DNA of 64,000 bases from Catenuloplanes niger. GTDB taxonomy: Bacteria > Actinomycetota > Actinomycetes > Mycobacteriales > Micromonosporaceae. Below the pieces are notes generated by a model. That model was not told the origin of the DNA. It saw only the letters and a program-made list of their open reading frames with translations, and did not search any database. The stretch spans positions 8,170,501 through 8,234,500 of the forward strand of contig NZ_JAVDYC010000001.1 of assembly GCF_031458255.1 (NCBI RefSeq). Direction: 5' to 3'. This document shows positions 27,214 through 47,963 of the stretch, piece by piece (the first letter of the stretch is position 1; each line of letters starts with the position of its first letter). The position numbers and the translations under genes were made by a program.

Positions 27214-27407
27214 CTTGCTTACGTACCGTCTTGATCGTCCATTCTGCTAGATCATAGTGTCCCTTCGGGCTTCCGGCGTCATCCCTCCGGAGCCTGGGCA
27301 TGGAAGTTCGCCGTTCGCGAGATCCTCCGAACGGCGGGGCGAGACTTCCGCCGCCCTCCGCATGACTCGCTCAACCCCCCGAGTCGTACCGAGGAGAGGC
27401 AGCATCG

Positions 27408-30400
27408 ATGTTCGATCGTCCACACCTGCTTAGAGCCGCGGCGGCCACCGCCGTCGCGGCCGCGAGCCTCCTGGTGTCCGTCGTCGGCGCGCAGCCTGCG
27501 CAGGCCGCCGCCAAGGAGGACAAGATTCCACCGGCGCTCGCGCAGCAGTTCGCGGCGAAGGCCGAGGCTGACTACTGGATCCGGTTCACCGCAAAGGCCG
27601 ACCTGGGCAAGGCCGCCGCGACCAAGGACTGGAACGCGCGCGGCACCGCGGTCGCCGCGGAGCTGAAGAAGACGGCGAACGCCGCGCAGGAGAAGGTGCG
27701 CGCGGAGCTGACCTCGGCCGGGGTCAGCTTCCAGTCGTTCTGGGCCACCAACGCGATCAAGGTGACCGGCGGGTCCACGACGACCGCCCAGAAGATCGCC
27801 GCGCTGCCCGAGGTGCAGGGCCTCTACCCGAGCGTCGCCTACGAGATCCCGGAGACGAAGGAGGGCGACGACGAGAAGACCGTGAACGCCCTCGAGTGGG
27901 GCATCGCCAGCATCAACGCCGACGACGTCTGGTCGCAGTACGGCGTGACCGGCGAGAACGTCGTCATCGCCAACATCGACACCGGCGTGCAGTTCGACCA
28001 CCCCGCGCTGGTCGGCAAGTACCGTGGCAACAACGGCGACGGTACGTTCGACCACAACTACAACTTCTTCGACGCGGCCAACGCCTGTGCCGGTGACGCG
28101 CCGTGCGACACCGACGGCCACGGCACGCACACGATGGGCACGATGGCCGGTGCCGACGGCGGCAACCAGGTCGGCGTCGCGCCCGGCGTCAAGTGGATCG
28201 CGGCCAACGGCTGCTGCCCGTCCGACGCCGCGCTGATCACCTCCGGCCAGTGGATGCTGGAGCCGACCGACTCCGCCGGCCAGAACCCGGACGCGAGCAA
28301 GCGGCCCAACATCATCAACAACTCCTGGGGTACGCGGCTGCCGTCCAACGAGCCGTTCATGGAGGACATCACGAACGCCTGGACCGCGTCCGGCATCTTC
28401 GGCGTCTGGTCCAACGGCAACATCGGCCTGTCCGGCTGCAACACCAGCGGTTCCCCGGGCAGCCTGGTCAGCAACTACTCGGCCGGCGCCTACGACGTGA
28501 ACAACGCGATCGCGAACTTCTCCTCCCGCGGGGCCGGGCAGAACGGCGAGGTCAAGCCGAACATCTCCGCCCCGGGCGTGAACGTGCGCTCCAGCGTCCC
28601 CGGCAACGGCTACGAGAGCATCTCCGGCACGTCGATGGCCGCACCGCACCTGGCCGGCGCGATCGCGCTGCTCTGGTCGGCCGCGCCCGCGCTGGTCGGT
28701 GACATCGCCGGCACCCGCGCGCTGCTCGACGGCAGCGCGATCGACGTCAACAACACCAGCTGCGGCGGTACGGCCACGGACAACAACGTCTGGGGCGAGG
28801 GCCGCCTGGACGCGCTGGCGCTGCTGAACTCGGCGCCGATCGGCGACACCGGCACGCTGGCCGGCACGGTCACCGGGCCCGGCGGCACGCCGGTCGCCGG
28901 TGCCACCGTCACGGTCGCCGGCGCGGTCGAGCGCACGCTCACCACGGCCGCGGACGGCACGTTCAGCGTGCTGCTGCCGGCCGGCGACTACACGGTCACG
29001 ATCGCCGGCTTCGGGTTCGGCACCGTGACCCGCACCGTCACCATCAGCAACAACGCCACCACCACGCTCGACGTGGCGCTGGCCGAGGTGCCGAAGGTCA
29101 AGGTCACCGGCACGATCACGGACGGCTCCGGTCACGGCTGGCCGCTGTACGCCAAGATCACCGTCGCGGGCCCGTCCGGTGTGTCCGACTACACCGACCC
29201 GACCGACGGCTACTACGAGCTCGAGCTGCCGGCCGGCGCGACCTACCAGCTGACCGTGGATCCGGTCTACCCCGGATACCAGACCGTCAGCGAGAACGTC
29301 ACGGTCGGCGTCTCGGACGCCACCTGGGACAAGGCGGTGCCGGTCGACGTCGCGGCGTGCACCACCGCGCCCGGCTACGGCTGGGTCTCCGACGGTGAGT
29401 ACGAGACGTTCGACGCCGCCTCCACGCCCGCCGGCTGGACGGTGACCGACGCGGCCGGCCGCGGCCAGACCTGGAAGTTCACCGACGACGGCAACCGCGG
29501 CAACAAGACCGGCGGCACCGGCGGCTTCGCCATCGTCGACAGCGACGAGTACGGTGCCGGCGGCGCGCAGGACACCTCGCTGGTCAGCCCGGTCGTCAAC
29601 CTGTCCGCGGTGACCGCGCCGGTGATCCGGTTCAACCAGGACTTCAACTGGCTGGGCTCGGACCGGGCCGATGTCGACCTGAGCGTCGACGGCGGCGCCA
29701 CCTGGACGAACGTGCTGCGGCAGACCACGGACGCGCTCGGCCCGCGCACCACCGAGATCCCGATCCCGACCGCGGCCGGTGAGCCGGACGTGCAGGTCCG
29801 CTTCCGCTACTACGACGCCAGCTACGAGTGGTGGTGGGCGGTCGACAACGTGCTGATCGGCACCAACTTCGAGTGCAAGCCGGTCACCGCCGGCCTGGTC
29901 GTCGGCCACGTCGAGGACAAGAACACCGGCGGGTACGTCAACGGCGCCACCGTCAGCGGCGGCGGCACCTCGGCCGTCACCGCGGCGACGCCGGACGACC
30001 CGGGCCTGGAGGACGGCTTCTTCTGGCTGGTCTCCACGGCCACCGGAAAGATCGACTACACCGCGGCCGCGGCGAACTACGCGTCCCAGACGAAGTCCGT
30101 CACGGTCAAGGCGAACCGGGTCGTCGCCACGTCGTTCCAGCTCGCGGCCGGTCAGATCACGGTCACCCCGGCCGCGGTCACCGGCACGGTCCGCATGCCG
30201 GACGGCACGGTCAGCAAGAAGATCACCGTCAAGAACAACGGCGGGCTGCCGGTCGAGCTGGAGTTCAGCGAGCGGCCCGGCGGCTTCGAGCTGCTCCGCG
30301 CGGACGGCACCAAGGTCACCGACCGGCAGCTCCTGGCCGCCGCCGGTGCGCCGCTGCAGCGACTGACCACGCCGGCCTCGTTCGCCAGCCGCTCGTCGAT

Positions 30401-31766
30401 GGCCGCCACCGCGGTCCCGGCCGCCACGGCGCCGAGCGCGGCGCCGTGGACCGGGATCGGCAACTACCCGGCCAACGTGATGGACAACCGGGTCGTGTCG
30501 CTGGACGGCAGGACCTACTCCATCGCCGGCGGCAACGGCACCGCGTCCTCCGCGAAGAACTACGTGTACGACGCGGTGGCGCAGGCCTGGTCCGGGATCG
30601 CGGACCTGCCCGAGGCGCGGAACGCGGTCACGGCCGGCGCGATCGACGGCAAGATCTACGTCACCGGTGGCTGGGGCCCGGCCGGCCCGTCGCCGACCAC
30701 CTGGTCCTACGACCCCGACGCGAACACCTGGACCAAGCTGGCCGACAACCCGGCGCCGCGCGCCGCGGCCGCGCAGGCGGTGCTGGACGGCAAGCTCTAC
30801 GCGATCGGCGGCTGCACCACGGCCGCCTGCACCCCGATGTCCAACACCGTGACCGCGTACGACCCGGGCACGAACACCTGGTCGACCGCGGCCGCGTACC
30901 CGAAGTCGGTGGCGTTCGGCTCGTGCGGCGCGATCGCGGACGCGATCTACTGCACCGGCGGCAACGACGGTTCCGCCTCGCAGAAGGCGTCCTACACCTT
31001 CGACGGCACGGCGTGGACCGCGATCGCGGACGCGCCGGCCGACAACTGGGCGTCGTCGTACGCGGTGGCCAACGGCAAGCTGCTGGTCGTCGGCGGTTCG
31101 CAGGGCGGCGCGATCACGAACGCCGGCTTCGCCTACGACCCGGACGCCGGCACCTGGTCGGCGCTGCCGAACGCGAACGCCGCCCGCTACCGCGGCGGTG
31201 CGGCCTGCGGCTTCTACAAGGTGGGCGGCTCGTCCGGCAACTTCAACGCGCTGCCGGACAGTGAGGTGCTGCCCGGCTTCGAGGAGTGCGCCACCGGTGC
31301 GGACGTCTCCTGGCTGACGCTGGACAAGACGACCGCGACGCTCGCGCCCGGCAAGTCGGTCACGGTCACGGCCACGCTCGCCGGCACGGTCGAGCAGCCC
31401 GGCACGTACACCGCGGGCATCGCGATCAAGGAGAACACGCCGTACACCGTGGCGCCGGTGTCGGTCACGCTCACCGTCCAGCCGCCCAAGACCTGGGGCA
31501 AGCTGCTCGGCACCGTGACCGGCATCAACTGCCAGGGCGTCAGCGCACCGCTGGCCGGCGCCACCGTCCAGGTCGACTCCTGGGCACAGTCCTTCACGTT
31601 CACCACGGACGCGGCCGGCCGGTACGCCCACTGGCTGGACAACCGCAACAACCCGCTCACCCTGATCGTCGCCAAGGACGGCTGGAAGCCGCAGACCAAG
31701 ACCACGAAGATCAACACGAGTACGCCGACCACGGTCGACTGGGCACTGCGCCCCACCACCTGCTGA
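27408..31766 (+). CDS. Secreted multidomain subtilase (S8) with kelch propeller
   Basis: A 1452-residue exoprotein. It has a signal peptide (cleavage near AQA, about residue 34) and a pro-region. The subtilase domain has catalytic D191 (IDTGVQFDHP), H238 (DGHGTHTMG), oxyanion Asn in NNSWG (about 305) and S409 (GTSMAAPH). Next come two carboxypeptidase-regulatory-like beta domains (about 480-640, TLAGTVTGPGGTPVAGATVTV), a jelly-roll region (about 690-820) and another regulatory-like domain. A kelch propeller (about 1010-1290, with YDPDANTWTKLADNPAPRAAAAQAVLDGKLYAIGG-type blades) is followed by a BACON-like domain and a last regulatory-like domain. It resembles bacillopeptidase F-type proteases fused to adhesion modules. 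GAGGAGAGG precedes the ATG. Confidence 0.93.
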   Translation: MFDRPHLLRAAAATAVAAASLLVSVVGAQPAQAAAKEDKIPPALAQQFAAKAEADYWIRFTAKADLGKAAATKDWNARGTAVAAELKKTANAAQEKVRAELTSAGVSFQSFWATNAIKVTGGSTTTAQKIAALPEVQGLYPSVAYEIPETKEGDDEKTVNALEWGIASINADDVWSQYGVTGENVVIANIDTGVQFDHPALVGKYRGNNGDGTFDHNYNFFDAANACAGDAPCDTDGHGTHTMGTMAGADGGNQVGVAPGVKWIAANGCCPSDAALITSGQWMLEPTDSAGQNPDASKRPNIINNSWGTRLPSNEPFMEDITNAWTASGIFGVWSNGNIGLSGCNTSGSPGSLVSNYSAGAYDVNNAIANFSSRGAGQNGEVKPNISAPGVNVRSSVPGNGYESISGTSMAAPHLAGAIALLWSAAPALVGDIAGTRALLDGSAIDVNNTSCGGTATDNNVWGEGRLDALALLNSAPIGDTGTLAGTVTGPGGTPVAGATVTVAGAVERTLTTAADGTFSVLLPAGDYTVTIAGFGFGTVTRTVTISNNATTTLDVALAEVPKVKVTGTITDGSGHGWPLYAKITVAGPSGVSDYTDPTDGYYELELPAGATYQLTVDPVYPGYQTVSENVTVGVSDATWDKAVPVDVAACTTAPGYGWVSDGEYETFDAASTPAGWTVTDAAGRGQTWKFTDDGNRGNKTGGTGGFAIVDSDEYGAGGAQDTSLVSPVVNLSAVTAPVIRFNQDFNWLGSDRADVDLSVDGGATWTNVLRQTTDALGPRTTEIPIPTAAGEPDVQVRFRYYDASYEWWWAVDNVLIGTNFECKPVTAGLVVGHVEDKNTGGYVNGATVSGGGTSAVTAATPDDPGLEDGFFWLVSTATGKIDYTAAAANYASQTKSVTVKANRVVATSFQLAAGQITVTPAAVTGTVRMPDGTVSKKITVKNNGGLPVELEFSERPGGFELLRADGTKVTDRQLLAAAGAPLQRLTTPASFASRSSMAATAVPAATAPSAAPWTGIGNYPANVMDNRVVSLDGRTYSIAGGNGTASSAKNYVYDAVAQAWSGIADLPEARNAVTAGAIDGKIYVTGGWGPAGPSPTTWSYDPDANTWTKLADNPAPRAAAAQAVLDGKLYAIGGCTTAACTPMSNTVTAYDPGTNTWSTAAAYPKSVAFGSCGAIADAIYCTGGNDGSASQKASYTFDGTAWTAIADAPADNWASSYAVANGKLLVVGGSQGGAITNAGFAYDPDAGTWSALPNANAARYRGGAACGFYKVGGSSGNFNALPDSEVLPGFEECATGADVSWLTLDKTTATLAPGKSVTVTATLAGTVEQPGTYTAGIAIKENTPYTVAPVSVTLTVQPPKTWGKLLGTVTGINCQGVSAPLAGATVQVDSWAQSFTFTTDAAGRYAHWLDNRNNPLTLIVAKDGWKPQTKTTKINTSTPTTVDWALRPTTC

Positions 31767-31783
31767 CACCCGGTCCCCACCAC

Positions 31784-31820
31784 GGGCCCGCCTCCGGTCG
31801 ACGAGACCGGGGGCGGGCCC
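31784..31820 (+). terminator. Strong hairpin after the subtilase gene
   Basis: A 15-bp stem (GGGCCCGCC-T-CCGGT with ACCGG-G-GGCGGGCCC, one G-U pair) and a 7-base loop start 18 bases after the stop, followed by TTCGTTGTGG. It separates the protease from the downstream operon. Confidence 0.8.
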
Positions 31821-31974
31821 TTCGTTGTGGCACTCGTCACGTCACGCTTTCGGGCGGACCTCCTCGGCATCGACGCAGGTGGCTCCCGTCGACGTCCCCG
31901 AAAGGTGACCTTTGGGCTTAAGGGAACGTAAAAGTTCATAACCCGCAGGCGTGTTAGCGTTCCGCCGCCCTCTC

Positions 31975-31990
31975 TTGGGAACGCTCCCAA
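31975..31990. promoter_or_regulatory. LacI/CebR-like operator before the glycosyltransferase operon
   Basis: TTGGGAACGCTCCCAA is a near-perfect 16-base palindrome, very close to the TGGGAGCGCTCCCA box bound by CebR-type LacI regulators in actinomycetes. It ends 30 bases before the first ATG of the operon. The cognate repressor is not adjacent. Confidence 0.6.
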
Positions 31991-32020
31991 TCAGCTCAAA
32001 GCACCTTATAGGGGATCGCC

Positions 32021-33307
32021 ATGACTTCTGTCATCGTGGCCGCCACGCCCTTCCACGGACACGTCACCCCGCTTCTCACCGCCGCCACCGACCTGGCCGC
32101 CCACGGCCACGAGGTGCTGTTCCTGACCGGTGCCCGCTACGCCGGCCGCGTCCGCGCGGCCGGACTGCGATTCGTCCCGCTCGACCCCGAGGCCGACTTC
32201 GACGACCGCGACATGGACGCCTCGTTCCCCGGCTTCGCGGACGTCCCACCCGGGCCGGGCCAGCACGCGTTCTTCTGGCAGCGGGTCTTCGCCGACGCCG
32301 CCGGGGCACAGCACCGGCAGCTGACCGCGCTGCTCACCGAGTTCCCCGCGGCCGTCCTGGTGCACGACACGATCTTCCTCGGCGCGCTGCCGTTCTCCCT
32401 CACCGACGATCCGGGCCGGCCGCTCACCGTCTGCCTCGGCGTGCTGCCGCCGATGCTGACCAGCGCGGACGCGCCCCCGTTCGGGCTGGGCGTGCCGTTC
32501 ACCGCGGACCGCGACCGGATCCGCGCGCTCAACACCGAGCTGCTCGAGGTGTACGCCGACATGCAGCGCGACATCGAGAAGACGTTCGCCGGCCTCGGCG
32601 TCCCGCTGCCCGGCTTCATCTTCGACTGCGCGGTCACCGCGCCCGCCCACTACCTGCAGCTCACCGTCCCGGCCTTCGAGTACCCGCGCACGGACGCGCC
32701 CGCCTCGTTCCGGTGCGCCGGCGCGCTGCCGCCGTCGGCCGGTGGCGCCTACGAACCGCCGGGATGGTGGCCCGAACTGCGCGCCGGCCGGCCGGTGGTG
32801 GTGGTCACCCAGGGCACGCTCGCCAACGACGACCTGTCCGAGCTGATCGTCCCCGCGATGCGCGGGCTGGCCGGCCTGGACGCGCTGGTCGTCGTCGCCA
32901 CCGCCCGCCCGGACGGCCCGGACGAGGTGCGCCGGCTGCTGCCGGACCGGCCGGACAACGCCCGGGTCGAGGGCTACGTCCCGTTCGACCTGCTGCTGCC
33001 GTACGCCGACGTGCTGGTCACCAACGGCGGGTACGGCGGCGTGCACACCGCGCTGCACCACGGCGTACCGCTGGTGGTGGCCGGCGACACCGAGGACAAG
33101 GCCGAGGTGGCCGCCCGCGTGGCGTGGTCCGGCGTCGGCGTGGACGTGCGCACCGGCCGCCCCGGCCCGGAGCGGATCGGGGACGCGGTACGCACGGTGC
33201 TGACCGACGCCGCGTACCGGCGCCAGGCCCGGGCCATGCGGGACGAGTTCGCCCGCCACGACCCGATCCGGGCCCTCGCGGCGCTGGTCGCCGGGGCGGC
33301 CCGGTGA
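32021..33307 (+). CDS. GT1 glycosyltransferase (macrolide/UDP-glycosyltransferase type)
   Basis: First gene of a five-gene operon; 428 residues, GT-B fold. The N-terminal acceptor domain begins VIVAATPFHGHVTPLLTAATDLAAHGHEVLFLTG, the classic MGT/GT1 opening with the catalytic His candidate in FHGH. The C-terminal nucleotide-sugar domain has VVVVTQGTLAN and VTNGGYGGVHTALHHGVPLVVAGD (about 331-355), equivalent to the donor-binding loop. Such enzymes add glucose, GlcNAc or deoxysugars to small hydrophobic acceptors. AGGGG lies 7 bases before the ATG. Its TGA overlaps the GTG of the decarboxylase, so the two are translationally coupled. The acceptor is probably the product of the coupled pathway. 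Confidence 0.9.
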   Translation: MTSVIVAATPFHGHVTPLLTAATDLAAHGHEVLFLTGARYAGRVRAAGLRFVPLDPEADFDDRDMDASFPGFADVPPGPGQHAFFWQRVFADAAGAQHRQLTALLTEFPAAVLVHDTIFLGALPFSLTDDPGRPLTVCLGVLPPMLTSADAPPFGLGVPFTADRDRIRALNTELLEVYADMQRDIEKTFAGLGVPLPGFIFDCAVTAPAHYLQLTVPAFEYPRTDAPASFRCAGALPPSAGGAYEPPGWWPELRAGRPVVVVTQGTLANDDLSELIVPAMRGLAGLDALVVVATARPDGPDEVRRLLPDRPDNARVEGYVPFDLLLPYADVLVTNGGYGGVHTALHHGVPLVVAGDTEDKAEVAARVAWSGVGVDVRTGRPGPERIGDAVRTVLTDAAYRRQARAMRDEFARHDPIRALAALVAGAAR

Positions 33308-34437
33308 CCGAGGCGCTGCTCGCCGAGCGCCTGCTCGCGCTGATCGCGGCGGAACGGACCAAGGTCGGCTTCCCCGGCTGGTCCGCACCGCTGCCCGCCG
33401 TGCTCACCGCGTTCTTCGCCTACGAGCTCAACAACTACGGCGACCCGGGCACCGACCCGGTGTTCGCCTGGCACACCAAGGACCTGGAACGCGAACTGGT
33501 CGGCGAGCTCGCCGACGTGTTCGGCGCGGCGCCGGGCCGGCACTGGGGCTACGTCACCTCCGGCGGCGGCGAAGGCGTGCTCGCCGGGCTGTGGGAGGCC
33601 CGGCGCCGCCACCCCGGCGCCCGCGTCTACCACTCCACGGCCGCGCACGCGAGCGTGGCCCGCGCCGCCGACCTGCTGCGGATGGACGCGGTCGCGGTCC
33701 CGGCCGGCCCGCGCGGCGAGATGGACTACGCGGCGCTGGAACGGCTGGTGCGCGGCCGGCCCGCGATCGTGCTGGCGACCGTCGGCACCACGCTGACCGA
33801 GGCGGTCGACGACGTACCGCGGATCCGGGCCACGCTGCGCCGGGCCGGGGCCACCGGCGGGTACGTGCACGCGGACGCGGCGCTGGCCGGGCTGCCGCTC
33901 GCACTCGCCAGCGCCGGGCCGCCGCCGTTCGGGCTGACCGGTGCCGGTGCGGACAGCCTGTCGATCAGCGGGCACAAGTTCCTCGGCGTCCCGTTCCCGT
34001 GCGGTGTCTACCTCGCCCGCCGGGCCCCGGGCGTCGCCGCGGACCCCGGCGACCTGATGTGCGGCGCACCCGACGCGCTCAGCAGCTCGCGGAGCGGGCA
34101 CGCCGCGCTGATCCTGTGGTACCTGATGCGCCGGCACGGCCGGGACGGGCTGCGTGAGCTGGCCGACCGGGGCCGGGCCACCGCGGAGTACGCCGAACGC
34201 GCGCTCACGGCCGCCGGCTGGCCCGCCTGGCGCGCGCATCCGCAGGCCCGCACGGTCGTGTTCGCCACGCCGCCGCGACCGGTGCCGCGCGACTGGCCGA
34301 TGCCGTCGGTCGGCGGTCTCAGCCACATCGTCTGCACGCCGGGCGTCACCCGCGCCCGGATCGACCTCTTCGTCGCGGCCGTCGCCGAGGCCGCGCATGC
34401 ACACCCCAGGAGCGAGCTGGTATGTCAACCGCACTGA
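33304..34437 (+). CDS. PLP-dependent decarboxylase, histidine-decarboxylase-like (group II)
   Basis: A 377-residue pyridoxal-phosphate enzyme. ELNNYGDPGTDPVFAWHTKDLERELV and WGYVTSGGGEGVLAGLWEAR match group II histidine decarboxylases. YHSTAAHASVARAADLL supplies the PLP-stacking His, HADAAL the PLP-binding Asp, and SGHKFLG the Schiff-base lysine, K225. Expected chemistry is decarboxylation of an amino acid to an amine in the cytoplasm, though the substrate (His, aromatic or other) cannot be read from sequence. GTG start in a GTGA overlap with the GT1 gene; its own end overlaps the GT2 gene by 16 bases. Its place between two glycosyltransferases suggests that the amine is glycosylated. Confidence 0.88.
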   Translation: MTEALLAERLLALIAAERTKVGFPGWSAPLPAVLTAFFAYELNNYGDPGTDPVFAWHTKDLERELVGELADVFGAAPGRHWGYVTSGGGEGVLAGLWEARRRHPGARVYHSTAAHASVARAADLLRMDAVAVPAGPRGEMDYAALERLVRGRPAIVLATVGTTLTEAVDDVPRIRATLRRAGATGGYVHADAALAGLPLALASAGPPPFGLTGAGADSLSISGHKFLGVPFPCGVYLARRAPGVAADPGDLMCGAPDALSSSRSGHAALILWYLMRRHGRDGLRELADRGRATAEYAERALTAAGWPAWRAHPQARTVVFATPPRPVPRDWPMPSVGGLSHIVCTPGVTRARIDLFVAAVAEAAHAHPRSELVCQPH

Positions 34438-35327
34438 GCGCCAGCGTGATCATCCCGACCTACAACCGGGCCGAGCTGCTCGGCCACACGCTGGAGTCGC
34501 TGGCCCGGCAGGACCTGCCGGCCGGCCGGTTCGAGGTGATCGTCGCGGACGACGGCTCGGCCGACCACACCCCGGCCGTGGTCGACGCCTACCGCGACCG
34601 GCTGGACCTGAGCTACCACTTCCAGCCGGACGAGGGCTACCGGGTCTCCGCCGTGCGCAACCTCGGGCTGTCCCACGCCCGCGGCGACGTCAGCGTGTTC
34701 CTCGACTCCGGCGTGCTCGCGCATCCCGGCCTGGTCCGCGCGCACGTCGACCGGCACGCCCGCGGCGGTGGGGAACGGGCCGTCATCGGCTACGTCTGGG
34801 GTTTCAACCTGGACAACGAGGACGCCGCCACGATCATCGACCTGATCGACCCGTCCGACGCCGGGGCCGCGATCGCCACGCTCGCCGCGGACGGGCGCTG
34901 GCCGGACATGCGCGAGGACTTCTACCGGCGCCACCACGACGACCTGGCGGACCTGCCCGCGCCGTGGACCGTGTTCTGGAGCTGCAACGTCTCGGTCCGG
35001 ACCGCGCTGGCCCGCGAGGTCGGCGCGTTCGACGAGCACTTCCGCAGCTGGGGCGGGGAGGACGTGGACTTCGGCATCCGGCTGCACCTGGCCGGCGCCC
35101 GGTTCGAGATCAGCCGCGCGGCCGTGGCACTGCACCATCCGCACGAGAAGGTGTTCGCCGACAACCTGGCCACGCTGATCCCGAACTACCTGCACATCGT
35201 GGCGAAGTATCCGACGCCGCTGATCCGGCTGCTGCCCGCGGTGCCGACCATCAGCCCGTTCAACCTCAACGACGTCGCCGCGTTCCTGGCCCTGCCGCGC
35301 TGCGCCGACGTGCTGGCCGGGCGATGA
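34422..35327 (+). CDS. GT2 family glycosyltransferase with galactosyltransferase-like C-terminus
   Basis: A 301-residue GT-A enzyme. The N-terminus SASVIIPTYNRAELLGHTLESLARQ and VADDGS (43-46) define GT2. GYRVSAVRNLGLSHARGDVSVFLDSG holds the metal-site region, with LDSG in place of a full DxD. WGGEDVDFGIRLHLAGARF (about 207-225) matches the Glyco_transf_7C motif with the catalytic Glu/Asp pair. No membrane segment is clear, so it is probably cytoplasmic or peripheral. AGGAGCGAG precedes the ATG at 34422, which lies inside the decarboxylase 3' end. An ATGA overlap links it to the next gene. It likely adds a sugar to the same product or carrier as the GT1 enzyme. Confidence 0.88.
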   Translation: MSTALSASVIIPTYNRAELLGHTLESLARQDLPAGRFEVIVADDGSADHTPAVVDAYRDRLDLSYHFQPDEGYRVSAVRNLGLSHARGDVSVFLDSGVLAHPGLVRAHVDRHARGGGERAVIGYVWGFNLDNEDAATIIDLIDPSDAGAAIATLAADGRWPDMREDFYRRHHDDLADLPAPWTVFWSCNVSVRTALAREVGAFDEHFRSWGGEDVDFGIRLHLAGARFEISRAAVALHHPHEKVFADNLATLIPNYLHIVAKYPTPLIRLLPAVPTISPFNLNDVAAFLALPRCADVLAGR

Positions 35328-37165
35328 CCGCGCTGCTGCGGGCGGTGACCGGGTCGGCCGCGCTGACCGCGGGGCTCCGGGCGACGACCGCGGGGCTCCG
35401 GGTGGTGCCGCTCGCCGGGGCCGGGACGGTCGCCGGGCTGACCGCGACCGCGCTCGTCACCGGCGCGCTGCCGGTGCTGTTCGCGGTGGCGAGCAGCCAG
35501 GTCCTCGGCGCCTCGGCCGGGCCGGTGCGCGGCCCGCGGCTGCTGGTCTGGTTCGCGGTCGCGACCGGCGCGCTGCTGCTGCGCGAGGTGCTCGCGCAGG
35601 TCCGGACGGCGCTGGCCGAACTGGCCGCGCGCCGGATCGACGGCGCGGTGACCGCGCGGATGATGACCGCCGCGCTCGCCGACCCGGGCCTCACGTCACT
35701 GACCCGGCCGGCGACCGTGGACGCGCTGCGGATCGCCGCCCGCGAGCTGGAGGAGGGGGTACGCAGTCCCGGGCAGGCGGGCGCGGCCGCGGTGGTGCTG
35801 CTCGCCCGGGTCGTGGAGTGGGCCGGCTACTGCCTGTGCGTGGCGGTGGCGTTCGCATGGTGGGCCGGTGCCGTGCTGGCCGGTGTGGTGCTGCTGTTCC
35901 GGCACGCCCAGCGGTACGGGCTGCGCCGCTACGCCGCGGCCCGGGACGCGCTCGCCGGCCCGGAACGGGAGATCGACTACCTGCGGCGGCTGTCCGTCGC
36001 GCCGGACGCCGGCAAGGAGATCCGGGTCTTCGGGCTCGGCGGCTGGCTGCACGATCGGCTCGGCACGGCCTACCACGCCTGGCTGCACCCGCTGTGGGCG
36101 GCGCGGCGGGCCGCCTACCTGGCGCCGTTCCACCGGGTCACCGCGGTCGGCGTACCGGCCGTCGCGCTGGTGCTGGCCGCGCTCGGCGCGACCGGCGGGC
36201 ACCTGCCCGCCACCGCGTTCTTCCTGACCGTGCTGGCCACGCTCGGCGCGCTCCGGCTCGGTGAGTTCTATCCGGAGGTCGACCTGCAGACCACGGTCGG
36301 GATGCGCGCGCACGACGCGGTCGACCGCTTCGCCGGGCTGGCCGGGGGCGGCGCGCCGGCCGGGTCCGCCCCGGCACCCGGCGTGCGCGGCGAGATCCGG
36401 TTCGACGGCGTGAGGTTCACCTATCCCGGCCGGGACCGGCCCGTCCTCGACCGGCTCGACCTCGCGCTGCCGGCCGGGCGGTGCACCGCGATCGTCGGCG
36501 CGAACGGCGCGGGCAAGTCCACGCTGGTCAAGCTGCTGGCCCGGCTGCACGACCCGGACACCGGCCGGATCCTGGTCGACGGCGTGGACCTGGCCGGGAC
36601 GGACGTCGCGGCCTGGCGGCGCCGGATCGCGGTCACGTTCCAGGACTTCGCCCGGTACGAGATGTCCGCGGCGGACAACATCGGACTCGGCGCCGCGGGT
36701 CCGCTCGACGACCGGGCCGGCATCCGGGCCGCGGCCGCGGCCGCCGGGATCGCCGCCGACCTGGACCGGCTGCCGGCCGGGCTGGACACGCCGCTGGCAC
36801 CGCACCTGACCGGCGGGACCGACCTGTCCGGCGGCCAGTGGCAGCGGATCGCGCTGGCCCGGGCGGTGTTCGCGCTCCGGCACGGCGCCACCGTGCTGGT
36901 CCTGGACGAGCCGACGGCCAGCCTCGACGTCCGCACCGAGGCCCGGTTCTTCGACGAGTTCGCCGAGCTGACCCGGGGCGCGACCACCGTGCTGGTGTCG
37001 CACCGGTTCGCCACCGTCCGGCACGCCGACCACATCGTGGTCCTCGCCGGCGGCCGGGTCGCCGAGCGCGGCACCCACGACGAGCTGATCGCGCTCGGCG
37101 GCGACTACGCGCGGATGTACGGCCTGCAGGCCGCCCGCTACCACGACCGGCAGGTGCCCGCATGA
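35324..37165 (+). CDS. ABC exporter half-transporter A (TMD-NBD fusion)
   Basis: A 613-residue fused permease-ATPase. The N-terminal membrane domain (about 25-320) is Ala/Val/Leu-rich with up to six helices. The ATPase domain has Walker A GANGAGKST (about 391), Q-loop FQDFARYEMSAADNIGLG, signature LSGGQWQR (about 501), Walker B VLVLDEPTASLD and the H-loop SHRF. The FQDF.RYE form of the Q-loop region is common in actinobacterial exporters of peptides and natural products, for example RamA/RamB-like pairs. It overlaps the GT2 gene by ATGA and the second transporter by ATGA. Presumably it forms a heterodimer with the next protein to export the operon's product. Confidence 0.9.
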   Translation: MTALLRAVTGSAALTAGLRATTAGLRVVPLAGAGTVAGLTATALVTGALPVLFAVASSQVLGASAGPVRGPRLLVWFAVATGALLLREVLAQVRTALAELAARRIDGAVTARMMTAALADPGLTSLTRPATVDALRIAARELEEGVRSPGQAGAAAVVLLARVVEWAGYCLCVAVAFAWWAGAVLAGVVLLFRHAQRYGLRRYAAARDALAGPEREIDYLRRLSVAPDAGKEIRVFGLGGWLHDRLGTAYHAWLHPLWAARRAAYLAPFHRVTAVGVPAVALVLAALGATGGHLPATAFFLTVLATLGALRLGEFYPEVDLQTTVGMRAHDAVDRFAGLAGGGAPAGSAPAPGVRGEIRFDGVRFTYPGRDRPVLDRLDLALPAGRCTAIVGANGAGKSTLVKLLARLHDPDTGRILVDGVDLAGTDVAAWRRRIAVTFQDFARYEMSAADNIGLGAAGPLDDRAGIRAAAAAAGIAADLDRLPAGLDTPLAPHLTGGTDLSGGQWQRIALARAVFALRHGATVLVLDEPTASLDVRTEARFFDEFAELTRGATTVLVSHRFATVRHADHIVVLAGGRVAERGTHDELIALGGDYARMYGLQAARYHDRQVPA

Positions 37166-38922
37166 TCTCCACGGCCGTCCTGCTGCTGCGCAACGCGTGG
37201 CGCGCCGACCCGCGCCGCATCCTGACCGCGGCCGGGTTCGCGCTCGGCGGCGCGCTGGCCGGCCCACTGATCGCCGCCGCGCTCGCCGCGATGACCGGCG
37301 CGGTGCTCACCGGGCGCCCGGTGGCCGCCGCCGTGTCCGGTGCGGCCGTGGCCGTGCTGGCCGTGGCCGCGCTGACGTTCACCCACTTCGGGCACGTCTT
37401 CTGGTTCGAACTGTCCGAACTGGCCGAGCTCGACTTCGACCGGGACCTGGCCGCGCTCTCCAACGGCTCGGACGGCATCGCGCACCACGAGCGCGCGGAC
37501 CTGGCCGACCGGTTCACGCTGCTGCAGCGGGAGAGCCGGCAGTTCCACACCGGGCTCGGCGCGGTGCTCGGCCTCGGCGGCCTGGTGCTGGCCGTGCCGG
37601 TCACCGCGGTGCTGCTCGCCCGGGTCAGCCCGCTGCTGCTGTTCCTGCCGCTGGCCGTGCTGCCGCCGCTGGCCGCGGCCCGCCTCGCCGAGCGGGTCCT
37701 GGACCGGGCCCGGACCGCGGCGGCCGAGCCGACCCGGGTGGCGCGGCACCTGTTCGGGCTGGTCACCTCCCCGCGGTACGCCGGCGAGCTGCGCGTCGCC
37801 GGGGTGGGCGGGCTCCTGCTGGACCGGCACGCGGCACTGTGGCGGACCGCCACCGGGCTGCTCACCGCGGGTCAGCTGCGTGCCGCCGCGATCCGTGCGG
37901 CGGGTCAGGCGCTGTTCGCGCCGGCCTACGGCGCGGCCGTGCTCGTCGCGGTCGACCGGGCGGCCGGGGCCGGCACCGTCGTGCTCGTGGTCGCGCTGGC
38001 CGTGCAGGTCAACGCGCAGTTCACCGCCGCGGTGGCGCTGGTGCGGGACCTGCAGCGGATCGACACCGCGTACCGGCACGCGGCCGAGGTGCGGGCCGCG
38101 GTCGCGGGCACCGGCGCCACCGGCGACGGCGAGGTGCCGGACCGGCTGCGGACCGGCATCACGCTCGACGGCGTCTCGTTCCGGCGCCCCGGCGCGGACC
38201 GGGCGGTGCTGCGGGACGTGCACCTGACGCTGCCGGCCGGCGCCACGGTCGCGGTGATCGGCGAGAACGGTGCCGGCAAGTCCACCCTGATCAAGCTGCT
38301 GTGCGGCCTGTACACGCCGACCACCGGACGAATCCTGGTGGACGGCGTGGACCTGCGGCGGATCCCGGCGGCCCGCTGGCGGGACCGGCTGTCGGCCGGT
38401 TTCCAGGACCACGTCCGCTTCGAGTTCCCGGTCCGGGAGACCGTGGGCGTGGGTGACCTGCCGCGGCTCGGCGACGACCGGGCGGTACGCGACGCGCTGT
38501 CCCGGGCCGGCGCGGAGGCGATGGTCGACGCGCTTCCGCGCGGCCTGGACTCGCCGCTGGGCACCGCCTACACCGACGGCACCGGCCTGTCCGGCGGCCA
38601 GTGGCAGCGGCTGGCGCTCGGCCGGGCGTTCATGCGCCGTACGCCGCTGCTGCTGGTGCTGGACGAGCCGGCGTCCGCGCTGGACCCCGATGCCGAGCAC
38701 CGGCTCTTCGACCGGTACGCGGCCCAGGCCTCGGCCGTCGCCGCGCGCGCCGGTGCGATCACCGTGTTCGTCTCGCACCGGTTCTCGACCGTCCGCGCCG
38801 CCGACCTGATCGTGGTGCTGCGCGACGGCCGGGTCGCCGAGGCCGGCGACCACGAGACCCTGCTGGCCGCGGGCGGCGCGTACGCCGGCCTCTATGCGGT
38901 GCAGGCCGCCGCGTACCGCTGA
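37162..38922 (+). CDS. ABC exporter half-transporter B (TMD-NBD fusion)
   Basis: A 586-residue partner of the preceding exporter. The membrane domain (about 1-320) is followed by an ATPase with Walker A GENGAGKST (about 367), FQDHVRFEFPVRETVGVGD, signature LSGGQWQR (about 475), Walker B LLLVLDEPASALD and an H-loop in SHRF. In the D-loop ASALDPD stands where the partner has ASLDVR; both sites look able to hydrolyse ATP. Its ATG overlaps the preceding stop. It is the last gene of the operon; a 10-bp perfect hairpin (38938-38965) separates it from the convergent regulator gene. Confidence 0.9.
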   Translation: MISTAVLLLRNAWRADPRRILTAAGFALGGALAGPLIAAALAAMTGAVLTGRPVAAAVSGAAVAVLAVAALTFTHFGHVFWFELSELAELDFDRDLAALSNGSDGIAHHERADLADRFTLLQRESRQFHTGLGAVLGLGGLVLAVPVTAVLLARVSPLLLFLPLAVLPPLAAARLAERVLDRARTAAAEPTRVARHLFGLVTSPRYAGELRVAGVGGLLLDRHAALWRTATGLLTAGQLRAAAIRAAGQALFAPAYGAAVLVAVDRAAGAGTVVLVVALAVQVNAQFTAAVALVRDLQRIDTAYRHAAEVRAAVAGTGATGDGEVPDRLRTGITLDGVSFRRPGADRAVLRDVHLTLPAGATVAVIGENGAGKSTLIKLLCGLYTPTTGRILVDGVDLRRIPAARWRDRLSAGFQDHVRFEFPVRETVGVGDLPRLGDDRAVRDALSRAGAEAMVDALPRGLDSPLGTAYTDGTGLSGGQWQRLALGRAFMRRTPLLLVLDEPASALDPDAEHRLFDRYAAQASAVAARAGAITVFVSHRFSTVRAADLIVVLRDGRVAEAGDHETLLAAGGAYAGLYAVQAAAYR

Positions 38923-38937
38923 ACGCGCCCCGGGGCG

Positions 38938-38965
38938 GGTGTGGTGGGCCTCGCTCCACCACACC
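38938..38965. terminator. Hairpin between the exporter operon and the convergent regulator
   Basis: GGTGTGGTGG and CCACCACACC form a perfect 10-bp stem with an 8-base loop, between the ends of convergent genes at 38922 and 38969. It is probably bidirectional. Confidence 0.7.
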
Positions 38966-38968
38966 TCC

Positions 38969-39502
38969 CTAGTGGGACGCGTAGCGGAAGCCGACGCCGC
39001 GGACCGAGAGGATGCGGGCGGAGGTGCCGATGTCGGCCAGCTTGCGGCGGACGCGGCGGACGACGGAGTGCAGGTCGGAGCCGCGGCCGAGGTGCTCGTT
39101 GCCCCAGACCTCGAGGTGCAGCTGCTTGTAGGTCCACACCTGGCCGGGCGAGCCGACCAGGCAGTTCAGGAAGTCGTGCTCCAGCGGGGTGAGGCTGACC
39201 TCGCGGTCCCGCCAGCGCAGCACGCGCCGGTCGGAGTCGACGCGCAGCGCCGGTTGCTCCGCGACGACCGGGGCCGCCGCCGGTGGCGTGGCCATGGTCG
39301 CGGTGGCGGTCGCGGTCGCGGCGAGCGTCGTGATCACGGTCGACTCGGGGGAGCCGACGATGTCGAGGAACTGGCGGGCCTGGTCGACGCTGGAGACGAT
39401 CAGGAACGCCTCGGTGTCGCCGAGCAGCCGGGCCAGCCGGCGTCGGTCGTCCGGCGTGGCCGCGATGCCGATGGTCAATGATGTGACCGGGATCTCCGTC
39501 AT
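38969..39502 (-). CDS. Winged-helix (OmpR-type) transcriptional regulator
   Basis: A 178-residue regulator. The C-terminal 100 residues form an OmpR/PhoB DNA-binding winged helix: RVLRWRDREVSLTPLEHDFLNCLVGSPGQVWTYKQLHLEVWGN, SDLHSVVRRVRRKLADIG and the terminal ILSVRGVGFRY. The N-terminal 60 residues (SLTIGIAATPDDRRRLARLLGDTEAFLIVSS) look like a degenerate receiver or sensor lacking the phospho-acceptor Asp pattern. An Ala/Thr-rich linker joins them. GGAGG 7 bases before the ATG at 39502 fixes the start. It is convergent with the exporter operon, with an AT-rich divergent promoter region on its other side. Control of the operon is possible but not shown. Confidence 0.87.
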   Translation of the reverse strand: MTEIPVTSLTIGIAATPDDRRRLARLLGDTEAFLIVSSVDQARQFLDIVGSPESTVITTLAATATATATMATPPAAAPVVAEQPALRVDSDRRVLRWRDREVSLTPLEHDFLNCLVGSPGQVWTYKQLHLEVWGNEHLGRGSDLHSVVRRVRRKLADIGTSARILSVRGVGFRYASH

Positions 39503-39789
39503 GCCGCACCTCCGGAATTCCCCGGAAACCGGGAGCCACGCTGTGATGGCGATCAATTGGCATGGACCCTAATCCCGGATTGTCACGTGCCGGTTAAGAA
39601 ACTGCTGGTCTGCCACCGGTTGTTGTCGTATGTGCGACACGCAGCGACGAATTGGAATTTCTCGATTTTTACATCCGCAAAATAGCAGCCAATGCGTATT
39701 GGATCGCCGCAGAACGGGTATGAGACCGAGCACCGCGGGGCCGCCACGGCCCGCGGCATGCCGTACCGGAACGTACGTGAGGAGCTGCC
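39503..39789. promoter_or_regulatory. AT-rich divergent promoter region
   Basis: The gap between divergent genes is the AT-richest stretch in this part of the window (notably 39640-39700, with GATTTTTACATCC and CAAAATAGC). It includes a small inverted repeat TGTCG/CGACA near 39626-39641. It should contain promoters for the winged-helix gene and the HPF-like gene; exact boxes are not clear. Confidence 0.4.
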
Positions 39790-40200
39790 ATGACTACCGC
39801 CGCGAGCCCGGCCACCGTCGCCACCTGCCTGCGGGTCGGCGCCGGATTCTCCCAGGGGGACCGGAACTGGATCGCCGAGCAGTTCGCCACGCTGGACGCG
39901 CGCCTCGCCTCCTTCGACGTCGACGCCACCGAACTGGAGGTGTCGGTCAAGGACCGGGAGGCGAAGGGCCAGAAGGTCACGCTGGAGTGCTGGATCGCCG
40001 GCCGCCCGAAGATCGTCACCACCTCGACCGAGGAGGACCTGCACGCCGCGCTGAACGACGTGCGTGACGACCTGCGCCGCAAGCTCAACGACTCGAAGTC
40101 CCGCCAGGAGCCGCGGAACAACCGGCACCTGCGCGAGGGCCGGCCGGAGATCGAGGAGCCGGAGCTGATCCCGGCCGAGGGTCTCCCGGCCCGCGACTGA
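39790..40200 (+). CDS. HPF/RaiA-like ribosome-associated protein
   Basis: A 136-residue protein whose first about 105 residues fit the S30AE/hibernation-promoting-factor pattern: FSQGDRNWIAEQFATLDARLASF, TELEVSVKDREAKGQKVTLECWIAG, KIVTTSTEEDLHAALNDVRDDLRRKL. This is the beta-alpha-beta-beta-beta-alpha order of the domain. It lacks the C-terminal dimerisation domain of long-form HPF; instead a charged tail (HLREGRPEIEEPELIP) follows. The expected role is binding the 30S decoding region in stationary phase or stress; this remains a fold-level inference. GAGGAG precedes the ATG, and a 32-nt perfect palindrome terminates it. Confidence 0.68.
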   Translation: MTTAASPATVATCLRVGAGFSQGDRNWIAEQFATLDARLASFDVDATELEVSVKDREAKGQKVTLECWIAGRPKIVTTSTEEDLHAALNDVRDDLRRKLNDSKSRQEPRNNRHLREGRPEIEEPELIPAEGLPARD

Positions 40201-40217
40201 CCGCCGGCGGTACGTGA

Positions 40218-40249
40218 CGAAGGGCCCCGGCGCGCGCCGGGGCCCTTCG
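40218..40249 (+). terminator. Perfect 32-nt palindrome after the HPF-like gene
   Basis: CGAAGGGCCCCGGCGC and its exact reverse complement lie side by side 18 bases after the stop, folding into a very stable hairpin. It is probably the terminator of the HPF-like gene. Confidence 0.8.
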
Positions 40250-40362
40250 CCGGGCCGGTGCCGGGTGACGACGCGCACGACCGCGCCCGGTCGCGGCCGC
40301 CGCATGGCACCGTCTCCCGTAGGACCTCCGACGGCCGGAGGCGACCGAGGAGCCTCGCGACG

Positions 40363-41691
40363 ATGACCACGACCACACCGGACGCGCACAGGTCCGCGGA
40401 CGACGAACCGTGGACGGACACGCCGGTGCGTGTCGCCGGCGGCCTGCTGCGCGGGCGCCGGGAGAACGGCCTGACCGTGCTGCGCGGCGTCCGGTACGCG
40501 ACCGCCGCCCGCTTCGCCGCGCCGGAGCCCGAGCCGCCGTGGGACGGCGAGCGGGACGCGCTCGCGGACGTGGGCGTGCCACCGCAGCCCGCGTCCCGGC
40601 CCACCTCACCGCTGGGCGTGATCACGGTCGGCACGCCGACCGAGGACTGCCTGCGCCTCACCGTCGCCACCCCGGCCGCGGACGACCGCCGCCGCCCGGT
40701 GCTGGTCTTCCTGCACGGCGGCGGCTACCGCTCCGGCAGCGCGGCCTGGGGGCGGTACGACGTACGCCGCCTGGCCCGCGAGGGCGACCTGGTGGTGGTC
40801 GGCGTCGGCAGCCGGATCGGCGCGCTCGGCTGGCTGCGCCTGCCCGGTCTCGCGCCCGGCAACCTCGGGCTGGCCGACCAGGTGACGGCGCTGCGCTGGA
40901 TCCGGGACAACATCGCCCACCTGGGCGGCGACCCGGATCGGATCACGTTGGCCGGCCACTCCTCCGGCGCGCACGCGGTCGTCTGCCTGATCGGGGTGCC
41001 GGCCGCGCGCGGGCTGTTCCACCGGGCGATCGTGCAGAGCCCGCCGCTCGGCCTCGGGCTGGGCTCGCCGGCCGCGTCCGCGCGGGCGTCCGCCGCGTTC
41101 CTGCGCCGGCTCGGCACGGACCCGCGCTCGGCCGGCGTCGCGGAGGTCGTCGCGGCCCAGGAGCGCGCCGAACGGGACCTGGCGGTGCGCACGGTCGGCG
41201 GGCTGGTGCCCGCGTTCATGCCGGTCGCGGGCGCGGACCTGCTGCCGGCGCCGGACGCCTGGCGGGCCGCCGCGGTGGAGAACGCACCACACCTGCAGAT
41301 CATCGCGGGTACGGCGGACCGCGAACTCGCGTACTTCTTCCGCAACACGCCGCTGGCCACGGTGCCGGGCCTGGAGCGGACGTCGACCGGGCGCGTCTTC
41401 ACCCGCCCCACGCAGCGCTTCGCGGAGCTGATGGCCGCGGGTGGCGCGCGCGTGCACACGTACCGGGTCGGTGCGTCCGGCCCCGGGCTGCCGCTGCGCG
41501 GCGCGCACTGCGGTGAGCTGCCGTGGCTGTTCGGCACGGAGCCGGACTGGGCCGGCGCGCCCATCCTGAACGGCCGCTCCTGGGCCGAGGTCGACGCGGA
41601 CGGCGCCCCGATGCGCGCCGCCTGGCTGCGCTTCACCGCCACCGGCGACCCCGGCTGGCCCGCCGACCCGGCCCACCCGCACCGCTTCTGA
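40363..41691 (+). CDS. Type B carboxylesterase
   Basis: A 442-residue alpha/beta-hydrolase of the carboxylesterase/para-nitrobenzyl esterase family, without a signal peptide. The N-terminal GGLLRGRRENGLTVLRGVRYATA and EDCLRLTV match the family. The oxyanion hole is HGGGY, the nucleophile is S200 in GHSSG (family usual GESAG), and GNLGLADQVTALRWIRDNIAHLGGDPDRITL is diagnostic. The catalytic His is probably in AHCGELPWLF. It hydrolyses esters of unknown origin. The start at 40363 is supported by GAGGAG about 10 bases upstream. It stands alone, downstream of a strong terminator. Confidence 0.9.
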   Translation: MTTTTPDAHRSADDEPWTDTPVRVAGGLLRGRRENGLTVLRGVRYATAARFAAPEPEPPWDGERDALADVGVPPQPASRPTSPLGVITVGTPTEDCLRLTVATPAADDRRRPVLVFLHGGGYRSGSAAWGRYDVRRLAREGDLVVVGVGSRIGALGWLRLPGLAPGNLGLADQVTALRWIRDNIAHLGGDPDRITLAGHSSGAHAVVCLIGVPAARGLFHRAIVQSPPLGLGLGSPAASARASAAFLRRLGTDPRSAGVAEVVAAQERAERDLAVRTVGGLVPAFMPVAGADLLPAPDAWRAAAVENAPHLQIIAGTADRELAYFFRNTPLATVPGLERTSTGRVFTRPTQRFAELMAAGGARVHTYRVGASGPGLPLRGAHCGELPWLFGTEPDWAGAPILNGRSWAEVDADGAPMRAAWLRFTATGDPGWPADPAHPHRF

Positions 41692-41893
41692 CCGCCGTTC
41701 CCCGGTACGCCCACGGCCCCGGCCCATCCGGCTGTCCGGTGGACCACGGGCGGGGCGTCGGCGGCCGCCCGGGCGGCGACGCGCGCGATCAGCCCGGCCG
41801 GCCGTGCCGTGCGGCGGCCCGATGTGGCGTGCATCCGCTCGGCCGGCCGCGCTCAGGCGACGTCCACCAGGTCCGCCACCCGCCACGCGCCGG

Positions 41894-47921: not shown

Positions 47922-47963
47922 CGGCTGGCACTCCCGGGGGCGCCGATCCGTGTGGATGCCCGG

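What the first reader, a model, noticed from the sequence alone, without database searches (positions are those of the whole stretch)
31975..38965. Compact GT1-decarboxylase-GT2-dual ABC exporter operon: candidate undescribed glycosyl-amine pathway
Seen: five genes on one strand, every junction overlapping (GTGA, 16-base overlap, ATGA, ATGA), preceded by a CebR-like palindrome and closed by a 10-bp hairpin. Known: GT1 and GT2 glycosyltransferases, a group II PLP decarboxylase and paired TMD-NBD exporters are each familiar. Inference: such tight coupling implies one job. The simplest model is that an amino acid is decarboxylated to an amine, given one or two sugars, and pumped out. There is no PKS, NRPS, LanC/LanM or obvious precursor peptide, so standard cluster classes would miss it.
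Basis: partly seen in the sequence, partly recalled or inferred. Interest (0 to 1): 0.72.

Follow-up and report, generated by a model that had tools for sequence, protein, structure and literature searches.

The report
Cellulose-switched sugar-transfer and export operon
Five tightly coupled genes form a self-contained cassette, apparently switched by the cell's cellulose sensor, that probably makes and exports a sugar-tagged small molecule, using a decarboxylase relative that has lost the residue needed to make ordinary amines.

Summary
All five genes recur in order in 3 of 354 same-family genomes, in two genera with different flanks; GT1-decarboxylase-GT2 recurs in a Burkholderiaceae MAG. In 3 of 5 same-genus genomes the flanks remain and the cassette is absent, placing its edges near 31,824-38,967.

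Two results change the interpretation. First, the palindrome is one base from the published CebR cellulose operator; the strict form occurs 3 times in the 9.74-Mb genome: here, before an SBP/permease/GH1/LacI operon, and before a GH9 cellulase. A site of this class precedes all three five-gene copies. Second, the 'decarboxylase' lacks the catalytic-loop tyrosine in 4 of 4 cassette copies, while 20 of 22 aligned relatives, including the sister protein, keep it.

So an ordinary amine is not the default product. I favour decarboxylation-dependent oxidation to an aldehyde, or another tyrosine-independent PLP reaction, with glycosylation and export. GT2-ABC1-ABC2 recurs as a block elsewhere (6 of 10 loci examined). 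Substrate and product are unknown. The enzyme kinds are known; the combination and wiring look new.

The parts
31824..38967 (+). Whole cassette as an insertion/deletion unit (edges known to a few bases)
   Evidence: Left-flank similarity to three same-genus genomes without the cassette ends at 31820-31823 and right-flank similarity starts at 38968-38971; 52, 747 and 2995 bp lie between the flanks in G002, G004 and G001.
31976..31989 (.). CebR-type operator TGGGAACGCTCCCA, 31 nt before the GT1 start codon
   Evidence: 3 strict sites in the genome, reversed control 0; the same class of site stands upstream of GT1 in L043 and L075.
32021..33307 (+). GT1: GT-B (family 1) glycosyltransferase, 428 aa
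   Evidence: EryCIII-like_C 74 bits, UDPGT 27.6 bits; PDB best match CalG1.
33304..34437 (+). Decarboxylase-like PLP enzyme of the histidine/serine decarboxylase lineage, 377 aa, without the loop tyrosine (Met252 at Lys225+27)
   Evidence: Pyridoxal_deC 54.2 bits; histidine decarboxylase model 259.8 bits, cut-off 305; alignment and tree.
34422..35327 (+). GT2: GT-A (family 2) glycosyltransferase-like protein, 301 aa, with D-S-G at the DXD position
   Evidence: Glycos_transf_2 84.5 bits, Glyco_transf_7C 32.9 bits; PDB best match chondroitin synthase; alignment.
35324..37165 (+). ABC1: exporter half, 613 aa
   Evidence: ABC_tran 97.5 bits; Walker A, LSGGQ, Walker B.
37162..38922 (+). ABC2: exporter half, 586 aa
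   Evidence: ABC_tran 97.9 bits; Walker A, LSGGQ, Walker B.
38923..38982 (+). Closing hairpin (terminator-like, no T run)
   Evidence: -43 kcal/mol, z -4.44. Part of the predicted outer stem lies beyond the cassette edge.

Best explanation
A self-contained, horizontally moving biosynthesis-and-export cassette of about 7.1 kb under cellulose (CebR-type) control. Proposed working: (1) when cello-oligosaccharides enter the cell, a LacI-family repressor leaves the operator and the five genes are transcribed together (inferred from operator sequence, rarity and company; about 0.75). (2) The PLP enzyme binds an amino acid, or an amino acid already carrying a sugar, as a decarboxylase would. Because the loop tyrosine that lets the intermediate become an amine is gone, the reaction most likely ends differently, by decarboxylation-dependent oxidative deamination to an aldehyde or by another tyrosine-independent route (loss of the tyrosine is shown; the outcome is inferred; not a plain amine about 0.6, aldehyde specifically about 0.35). 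(3) GT1 and GT2 add one or two sugars, before or after that step (inferred; about 0.6). (4) ABC1 and ABC2 act as a pair to export the product (inferred from pairing with GT2 in several loci; about 0.7).
For: Unit: same five genes and order in G000, G003 and G338, the last in another genus with different flanks; overlaps kept in 4 of 4 junctions in L043 and 3 of 4 in L075; empty sites in 3 of 5 same-genus genomes. GT1-DC-GT2 core in a Burkholderiaceae MAG at 57, 58 and 52% identity. Control: strict operator at 3 places in the genome, the other two before an SBP/permease/GH1/LacI operon and a GH9 cellulase with CBM; site upstream of GT1 in L043 and L075; a third strict site in G003 lies before a CBM2-GH5 cellulase. 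Chemistry: no Tyr in the loop in 4 of 4 cassette enzymes, Tyr in the aligned column in 20 of 22 others, cassette enzymes one clade at 100/99 with Tyr-bearing L044 as sister. In dopa decarboxylase the tyrosine-to-phenylalanine change gives an aldehyde-forming enzyme (PMC7497351, passages), and serine-decarboxylase-like plant enzymes that form aldehydes are known (PMC4177580, abstract, discussion and passages). Export: GT2-ABC1-ABC2 contiguous in 6 of 10 other loci.
Against: No expression, binding or enzyme data. Which LacI protein binds is not shown: no CebR model was found in NCBIfam for the candidate, and looser sites of this class occur 7-16 times in all 13 genomes examined, with or without the cassette. 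The cassette loop has Met or Leu, not Phe as in the known aldehyde-forming enzymes, so the outcome is uncertain; one remote relative (L059) lacks the Tyr without being in a cassette. The Burkholderiaceae copy has neither an operator of this class nor the ABC pair in the stretch held. The cassette is rare: 3 of 354 family genomes, none other in 394 class genomes.
Confidence: 0.45

Rival explanations
1. One reading: the enzyme is a true decarboxylase that makes an amine, which GT1 and GT2 glycosylate and the ABC pair exports.
For: Pyridoxal_deC and PLP-binding Lys, His and Asp kept; lineage of histidine and serine decarboxylases. A conserved Cys follows the lost Tyr position in 4 of 4 cassette copies and could be a substitute proton donor (inference).
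Against: Loop Tyr lost in 4 of 4, kept in the closest relative outside the cassette; the corresponding Tyr is essential in AtSerDC and CsAlaDC (PMC11407765, abstract and passages); three cassette enzymes score 259.8, 283.2 and 277.3 against a cut-off of 305, sister 329.7.
Confidence: 0.25
2. The PLP enzyme no longer decarboxylates and does another fold-type I reaction (elimination, transamination, carbon-carbon bond formation), perhaps on a glycosylated amino acid.
For: Changed loop motif [ML]CGAPD and changed neighbourhood (SSSR[SN]GH) common to the cassette clade. Precedent for PLP enzymes acting on a glycosylated amino acid: LmbF and CcbF on S-glycosyl-cysteine (PMC11794154, abstract and outline only); those are not group II enzymes (recalled).
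Against: No residue or neighbour gene points to a particular reaction; closest sequence matches are all decarboxylases.
Confidence: 0.2
3. Self-protection: GT1 inactivates a toxic compound and the ABC pair pumps it out; the PLP enzyme is accessory.
For: GT1 resembles the macrolide glycosyltransferase family, below cut-off (109.7 against 260); ABC pairs often export drugs (recalled).
Against: GT1-DC-GT2, without the ABC pair, is the part conserved furthest; no drug-specific family reached its cut-off; cellulose-type control does not fit a drug response.
Confidence: 0.07
4. Cell-surface glycan or glycolipid assembly, with the exporter flipping a glycolipid and the PLP enzyme supplying an amine substituent such as ethanolamine.
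For: GT2 matches chondroitin synthase and exopolysaccharide glycosyltransferase models, the latter below cut-off; MsbA-type models lead for both ABC proteins, below cut-off; GT2-ABC blocks recur.
Against: No polymerase, lipid carrier or anchoring gene in the 7.1-kb unit; the unit moves alone.
Confidence: 0.13

Closest known systems
Bacterial histidine decarboxylase / plant serine decarboxylase (group II PLP decarboxylases)
   Same: Same lineage by sequence (best PDB matches 7erv/7eru, then 8jij/8jg7); PLP lysine, stacking histidine and aspartate kept.
   Different: Catalytic-loop tyrosine absent in 4 of 4 cassette copies; below the curated histidine-decarboxylase cut-off in the three tested.
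Aldehyde-forming relatives of group II decarboxylases (aromatic aldehyde synthases; MtAAS/CaAAS of the serine-decarboxylase-like group)
   Same: Tyrosine of the mobile loop replaced (Tyr to Phe in the described cases, PMC7497351 passages); a serine-decarboxylase-like background for MtAAS/CaAAS (PMC4177580).
   Different: Here Met or Leu stands in the place; activity unknown. The passages I saw of PMC4177580 do not tie MtAAS activity to that residue.
CebR regulon, including CebR control of the thaxtomin cluster in Streptomyces scabies
   Same: A biosynthetic-looking unit behind a CebR-type site, in a genome where such sites stand before a ceb-like operon and a cellulase (PMC4890002 and PMC12527672, passages).
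   Different: No shared biosynthetic genes; different organism; the product is not predicted to resemble thaxtomin; binding not shown.
GT2-ABC1-ABC2 blocks of other gene clusters in the same bacterial family (this work)
   Same: Same three genes in the same order at about 51-59% identity in L110, L111, L112, L113, L116, L118.
   Different: Those loci hold other partners (an ATP-grasp-like protein, argininosuccinate-synthase-like, TauD, MFS, a second GT2), no GT1-DC pair and no operator of this class in the stretches held.

Membership tests
Group II PLP amino acid decarboxylase (histidine/serine decarboxylase type) | PLP-binding lysine (SGHK), stacking histidine and aspartate (H-x-D-A-A) | tested here: met
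   Kept in the window enzyme and its three cassette relatives; invariant in alignment A1: H115, D191, K225.
Group II PLP amino acid decarboxylase (histidine/serine decarboxylase type) | Catalytic tyrosine in the mobile loop | tested here: not met
   Absent in 4 of 4 cassette enzymes; present in the aligned column in 20 of 22 other relatives aligned. Lys-to-Tyr spacing of 27 (CsAlaDC Lys309/Tyr336) falls on Met252.
Histidine decarboxylase equivalog (NCBIfam NF002748) | Score of 305 bits or more | tested here: not met
   259.8 (window), 283.2 (L075) and 277.3 (L039); L043 not tested. Non-cassette L044 329.7 and L076 412.2 pass.
Decarboxylation-dependent aldehyde synthase | Loop tyrosine replaced (Phe in the described cases) | tested here: inconclusive
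   Replaced, but by Met or Leu.
Decarboxylation-dependent aldehyde synthase | Aldehyde, ammonia and hydrogen peroxide from an amino acid | not testable with these tools
   Needs purified enzyme.
CebR regulon member | CebR-type operator close to the promoter of the first gene | tested here: met
   31976-31989, 31 nt before GT1; site class also upstream of GT1 in L043 (32 nt) and L075 (111 nt).
CebR regulon member | Same operator before cellobiose/cellulose genes of the same genome | tested here: met
   The other two strict sites stand before SBP/permease/GH1/LacI and before a GH9-CBM2 cellulase.
CebR regulon member | A recognisable CebR that binds the site and is released by cellobiose | tested here: inconclusive
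   A LacI-family protein lies in the ceb-like operon but no CebR model exists among the NCBIfam hits, all of which are under their cut-offs. Binding not testable here.
Macrolide glycosyltransferase (NCBIfam TIGR01426) | Score of 260 bits or more | tested here: not met
   GT1 scores 109.7.
GT2 nucleotide-sugar transferase with DXD metal site | DXD motif | tested here: not met
   D-S-G in the window; D-[ST]-[GS] in 21 of 21 aligned relatives. The family trait may mean another metal arrangement; that DXD is usual is recalled.
Heterodimeric ABC exporter | Two adjacent exporter halves with complete ATPase motifs | tested here: met
   Walker A, LSGGQ, Walker B in both.
Heterodimeric ABC exporter | ABC transmembrane domain | tested here: inconclusive
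   Not reported by Pfam at E 0.001; N-terminal halves look hydrophobic by eye; full-length NCBIfam exporter models match partly and below cut-off.

The most novel reading that the evidence does not exclude
A cellulose-responsive, horizontally moving pathway in which a tyrosine-less group II PLP enzyme does a new reaction on an amino acid or glycosyl-amino acid, giving a small class of exported glycosides made from central metabolites alone and missed by cluster finders that look for known scaffold enzymes.
Probability: 0.25. Interest if true: 0.75.

Novelty: new variant of a known kind. Interest (0 to 1): 0.5.

Why it matters
It names a small, complete, testable unit: five genes, an operator and defined edges, seen with and without the cassette at the same place. 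If the operator works, it would be a case of CebR-type control of a metabolite unit outside the known thaxtomin example, linking plant-polymer breakdown to export of an unknown glycoside. The tyrosine loss, set against a close relative that keeps it, makes a long-asked question (how group II decarboxylases change reaction) testable in a bacterial pair of enzymes.

Tried and rejected
Plasmids: tblastn of the decarboxylase alone found 68 records, none at 60% identity or more, best 42.7%; no cassette signal there. GT1, GT2 and ABC were not searched in plasmids, and phages were not searched.

Class sample: 1 of 394 genomes (the window's own) at E <= 1e-95. Burkholderiaceae sample: 1 of 399 at E <= 1e-80. 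Only 4-5 candidates per genome were fully scored, so distant copies could be missed.

L070: a GT1 relative (about 45%) and an ABC pair (about 42%) lie 4 kb or more apart with another gene between; rejected as a partial cassette.

Degenerate DXD as a sign of a dead GT2: rejected, because D-[ST]-[GS] is the rule in 21 of 21 aligned relatives.

Precursor peptide upstream: five small ORFs, none supported in L075 or L039.

AlphaFold2 model of the decarboxylase-like protein: mean pLDDT 60.8, loop 244-264 under 50; too poor to use, no fold search made. Second structure job not used.

Direct repeats of 6 bases or more at the cassette edges, searched within 50-base stretches: none.

Literature: searches for a described cluster of this kind (listings only) showed no title that describes it; the library holds open-licence papers only, so this is weak evidence of novelty. 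Papers seen: PMC11407765 (abstract, passages), PMC4177580 (abstract, discussion section, passages), PMC7497351, PMC4890002, PMC12527672 and PMC3377646 (passages), PMC11794154 (abstract and outline).
Full report
What is there. Overlaps are 4, 16, 4 and 4 bp. Pfam names them EryCIII-like_C/UDPGT, Pyridoxal_deC, Glycos_transf_2 with Glyco_transf_7C, and ABC_tran twice. The genome has 9,742,698 bases in one contig and belongs to a family in which 354 genomes could be searched. I did not identify the organism by name.

One unit. With the decarboxylase-like protein as bait, 5 of 354 family genomes have a match at E <= 1e-95. Three hold all five genes in order: the window's genome, G003 of the same genus (91, 94, 93, 91, 93% identity), and G338 of another genus (65, 65, 71, 65, 64%). 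In one search one stop is reported within the G338 match; the match runs to the gene's end and the reading frame found there is open over 376 aa. The other two, G027 (L044) and G313 (L076), hold the decarboxylase alone in the 20 kb read; beside each lies what looks by eye like an amino acid permease. In L043 the four overlaps are the same as in the window; in L075 three of four are 4-bp overlaps and the decarboxylase-GT2 junction is a 21-bp gap. The scan of genome contigs confirmed 4 loci. One, L039 from a Burkholderiaceae MAG, has GT1-DC-GT2 in order at 57, 58 and 52% without the ABC pair; the other three have none of the partners. It is the only one of 399 genomes of its family with a match at E <= 1e-80.

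Edges and mobility. The stretch 27400-41700 was searched against four same-genus genomes. G003 matches along nearly all of it at 92%. In G001, G002 and G004 the two flanks match at 80-94% and lie close together, and the cassette is missing. Similarity ends at window 31820-31823 on the left and resumes at 38968-38971 on the right; 2995, 52 and 747 bp lie between in G001, G002 and G004. So 2 of 5 genomes of the genus (G000-G004) carry the cassette at this place and 3 do not. The 2995 bp of G001 hold unrelated reading frames, so the place seems variable. No short direct repeat was found at the edges, and no mobility gene lies inside. Insertion and loss are both possible for the genus; the different flanks in G338 and the MAG copy speak for horizontal movement.

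Cellulose wiring. The palindrome is TGGGAACGCTCCCA at 31976-31989, one base from the perfect CebR site TGGGAGCGCTCCCA reported upstream of cebE in Streptomyces scabies (PMC4890002, passages). TGGGARCGYTCCCA occurs at 3 places in this genome and the reversed pattern at none. The second place (6079243) stands before a solute-binding protein, a permease, a GH1 and a LacI regulator; the third (3707336) before a GH9 cellulase with CBM2 and CBM4_9. In G003 the same 14-mer stands before GT1, before a CBM2-GH5 cellulase, and at a third place I did not read. In G338 the site before GT1 is TGGAAGCGCTCCCA (on the gene's strand), 111 nt from the start; another copy of that 14-mer in G338 stands before what looks by eye like a GH6 cellulase. 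Of the DNA between the left edge and GT1, 83% identity over 199 columns is seen to L043 and nothing significant to L075, so between genera the operator is what persists. Against over-reading: the looser pattern TGGRARCGYTYCCA occurs 7-16 times in each of 13 genomes, with controls of 0-2 and whether or not the cassette is present; the class of site is therefore a regulon mark, not a cassette mark. Which LacI protein acts is open: the ceb-like operon has one (all its NCBIfam hits are under their cut-offs), and another lies in this window at 46783-47931 beside a GH6 enzyme with the site TGGAAGCGCTTCCA at 48005. The Burkholderiaceae copy has no such site in the stretch held.

The changed decarboxylase. 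The nearest solved structures are bacterial histidine decarboxylase and plant serine decarboxylase. In this lineage a tyrosine in a mobile loop is essential: Tyr341 of AtSerDC and Tyr336 of CsAlaDC (PMC11407765, abstract and passages). Lys309 and Tyr336 of CsAlaDC are 27 apart; in the window enzyme Lys225+27 is Met252. I aligned 26 proteins: the window's, 19 from the stronger hits, four and two; weaker hits were left out. All four cassette enzymes have [ML]-C-G-A-P-D there and no tyrosine in the loop; 20 of the 22 others have tyrosine in the aligned column, the exceptions being the remote L059 and L061. Some of the 22 are near-copies (L040/L042, L049/L050). The tree puts the four cassette enzymes in one clade (100/99) with L044, which has the tyrosine, as sister (100/99). 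The NCBIfam histidine decarboxylase cut-off of 305 is missed by three cassette enzymes (259.8, 283.2, 277.3; L043 not run) and passed by L044 (329.7) and L076 (412.2). PLP-binding residues stay. So this is not simply decay: one change on the branch that leads to the cassette, kept across genera and phyla. In dopa decarboxylase, changing this tyrosine to phenylalanine makes an aldehyde-forming enzyme (PMC7497351, passages), and aldehyde-forming members of the serine-decarboxylase-like group exist (PMC4177580; the passages I saw do not name the residue). Here the residue is Met or Leu, which has no tested precedent that I found, hence my modest odds.

The export block. GT2 relatives reach E <= 1e-45 in 55 of 354 family genomes. 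I read ten stretches around the best: GT2-ABC1-ABC2 lie in a row on one strand in 6 of 10 (L110, L111, L112, L113, L116, L118); in L119 the ABC pair is on the opposite strand; L114, L115 and L117 have no ABC pair in the stretch. Partners in some of them are an ATP-grasp-like protein, argininosuccinate-synthase-like, TauD, MFS, aminotransferase and a second GT2. The cassette therefore looks like GT1-DC chemistry joined to an existing GT2-exporter block; the MAG copy, with GT2 but no ABC, shows that GT1-DC-GT2 can stand without that exporter. All 21 aligned GT2 relatives have D-[ST]-[GS] where DXD is usual (the usual form is recalled).

Working model. Cello-oligosaccharides release the repressor; the five genes are made together; the PLP enzyme converts an amino acid (or glycosyl-amino acid) by a reaction that no longer ends in a tyrosine-dependent amine; GT1 and GT2 add sugars; the ABC pair exports. 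Shown: the genes, the unit, its edges, the operator and its company, the tyrosine loss. Inferred: repressor binding, reaction, substrates, order, product and export.

Verdict. Its simplest chemistry is weakened, and a more specific and testable picture takes its place. All enzyme kinds are known, so I rate it a new variant of a known kind.

Noticed in passing
window 46783-49022: LacI regulator (-) divergent from a GH6 glycoside hydrolase (+), with a CebR-class site TGGAAGCGCTTCCA at 48005.
   Followed up: partly
window 27408-31766: 1452-aa subtilase with carboxypeptidase-regulatory-like and kelch repeats; conserved left flank of the cassette in all five same-genus genomes.
   Followed up: partly
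L137 (G001): The place where the cassette sits holds about 3 kb of unrelated reading frames in G001, including what looks by eye like an alpha/beta hydrolase; a possible variable site.
   Followed up: partly
L110, L111, L112, L113, L116, L118: GT2-ABC1-ABC2 blocks in other gene clusters, L111 with argininosuccinate-synthase-like, TauD and ATP-grasp-like neighbours; possibly another uncharacterised metabolite family.
   Followed up: partly
all aligned GT2 relatives: D-[ST]-[GS] in place of DXD in 21 of 21.
   Followed up: partly
window 38969-39556 and 39790-40200: Regulator with only a Trans_reg_C DNA-binding domain and a small S30AE-like protein next to the cassette.
   Followed up: no
L040, L042: Two nearly identical Burkholderiales loci hold a Tyr-bearing decarboxylase relative near genes that look by eye like type III secretion parts.
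   Followed up: no
window 58873-62763: GH78 rhamnosidase (-) beside an AraC-type regulator (+).
   Followed up: no
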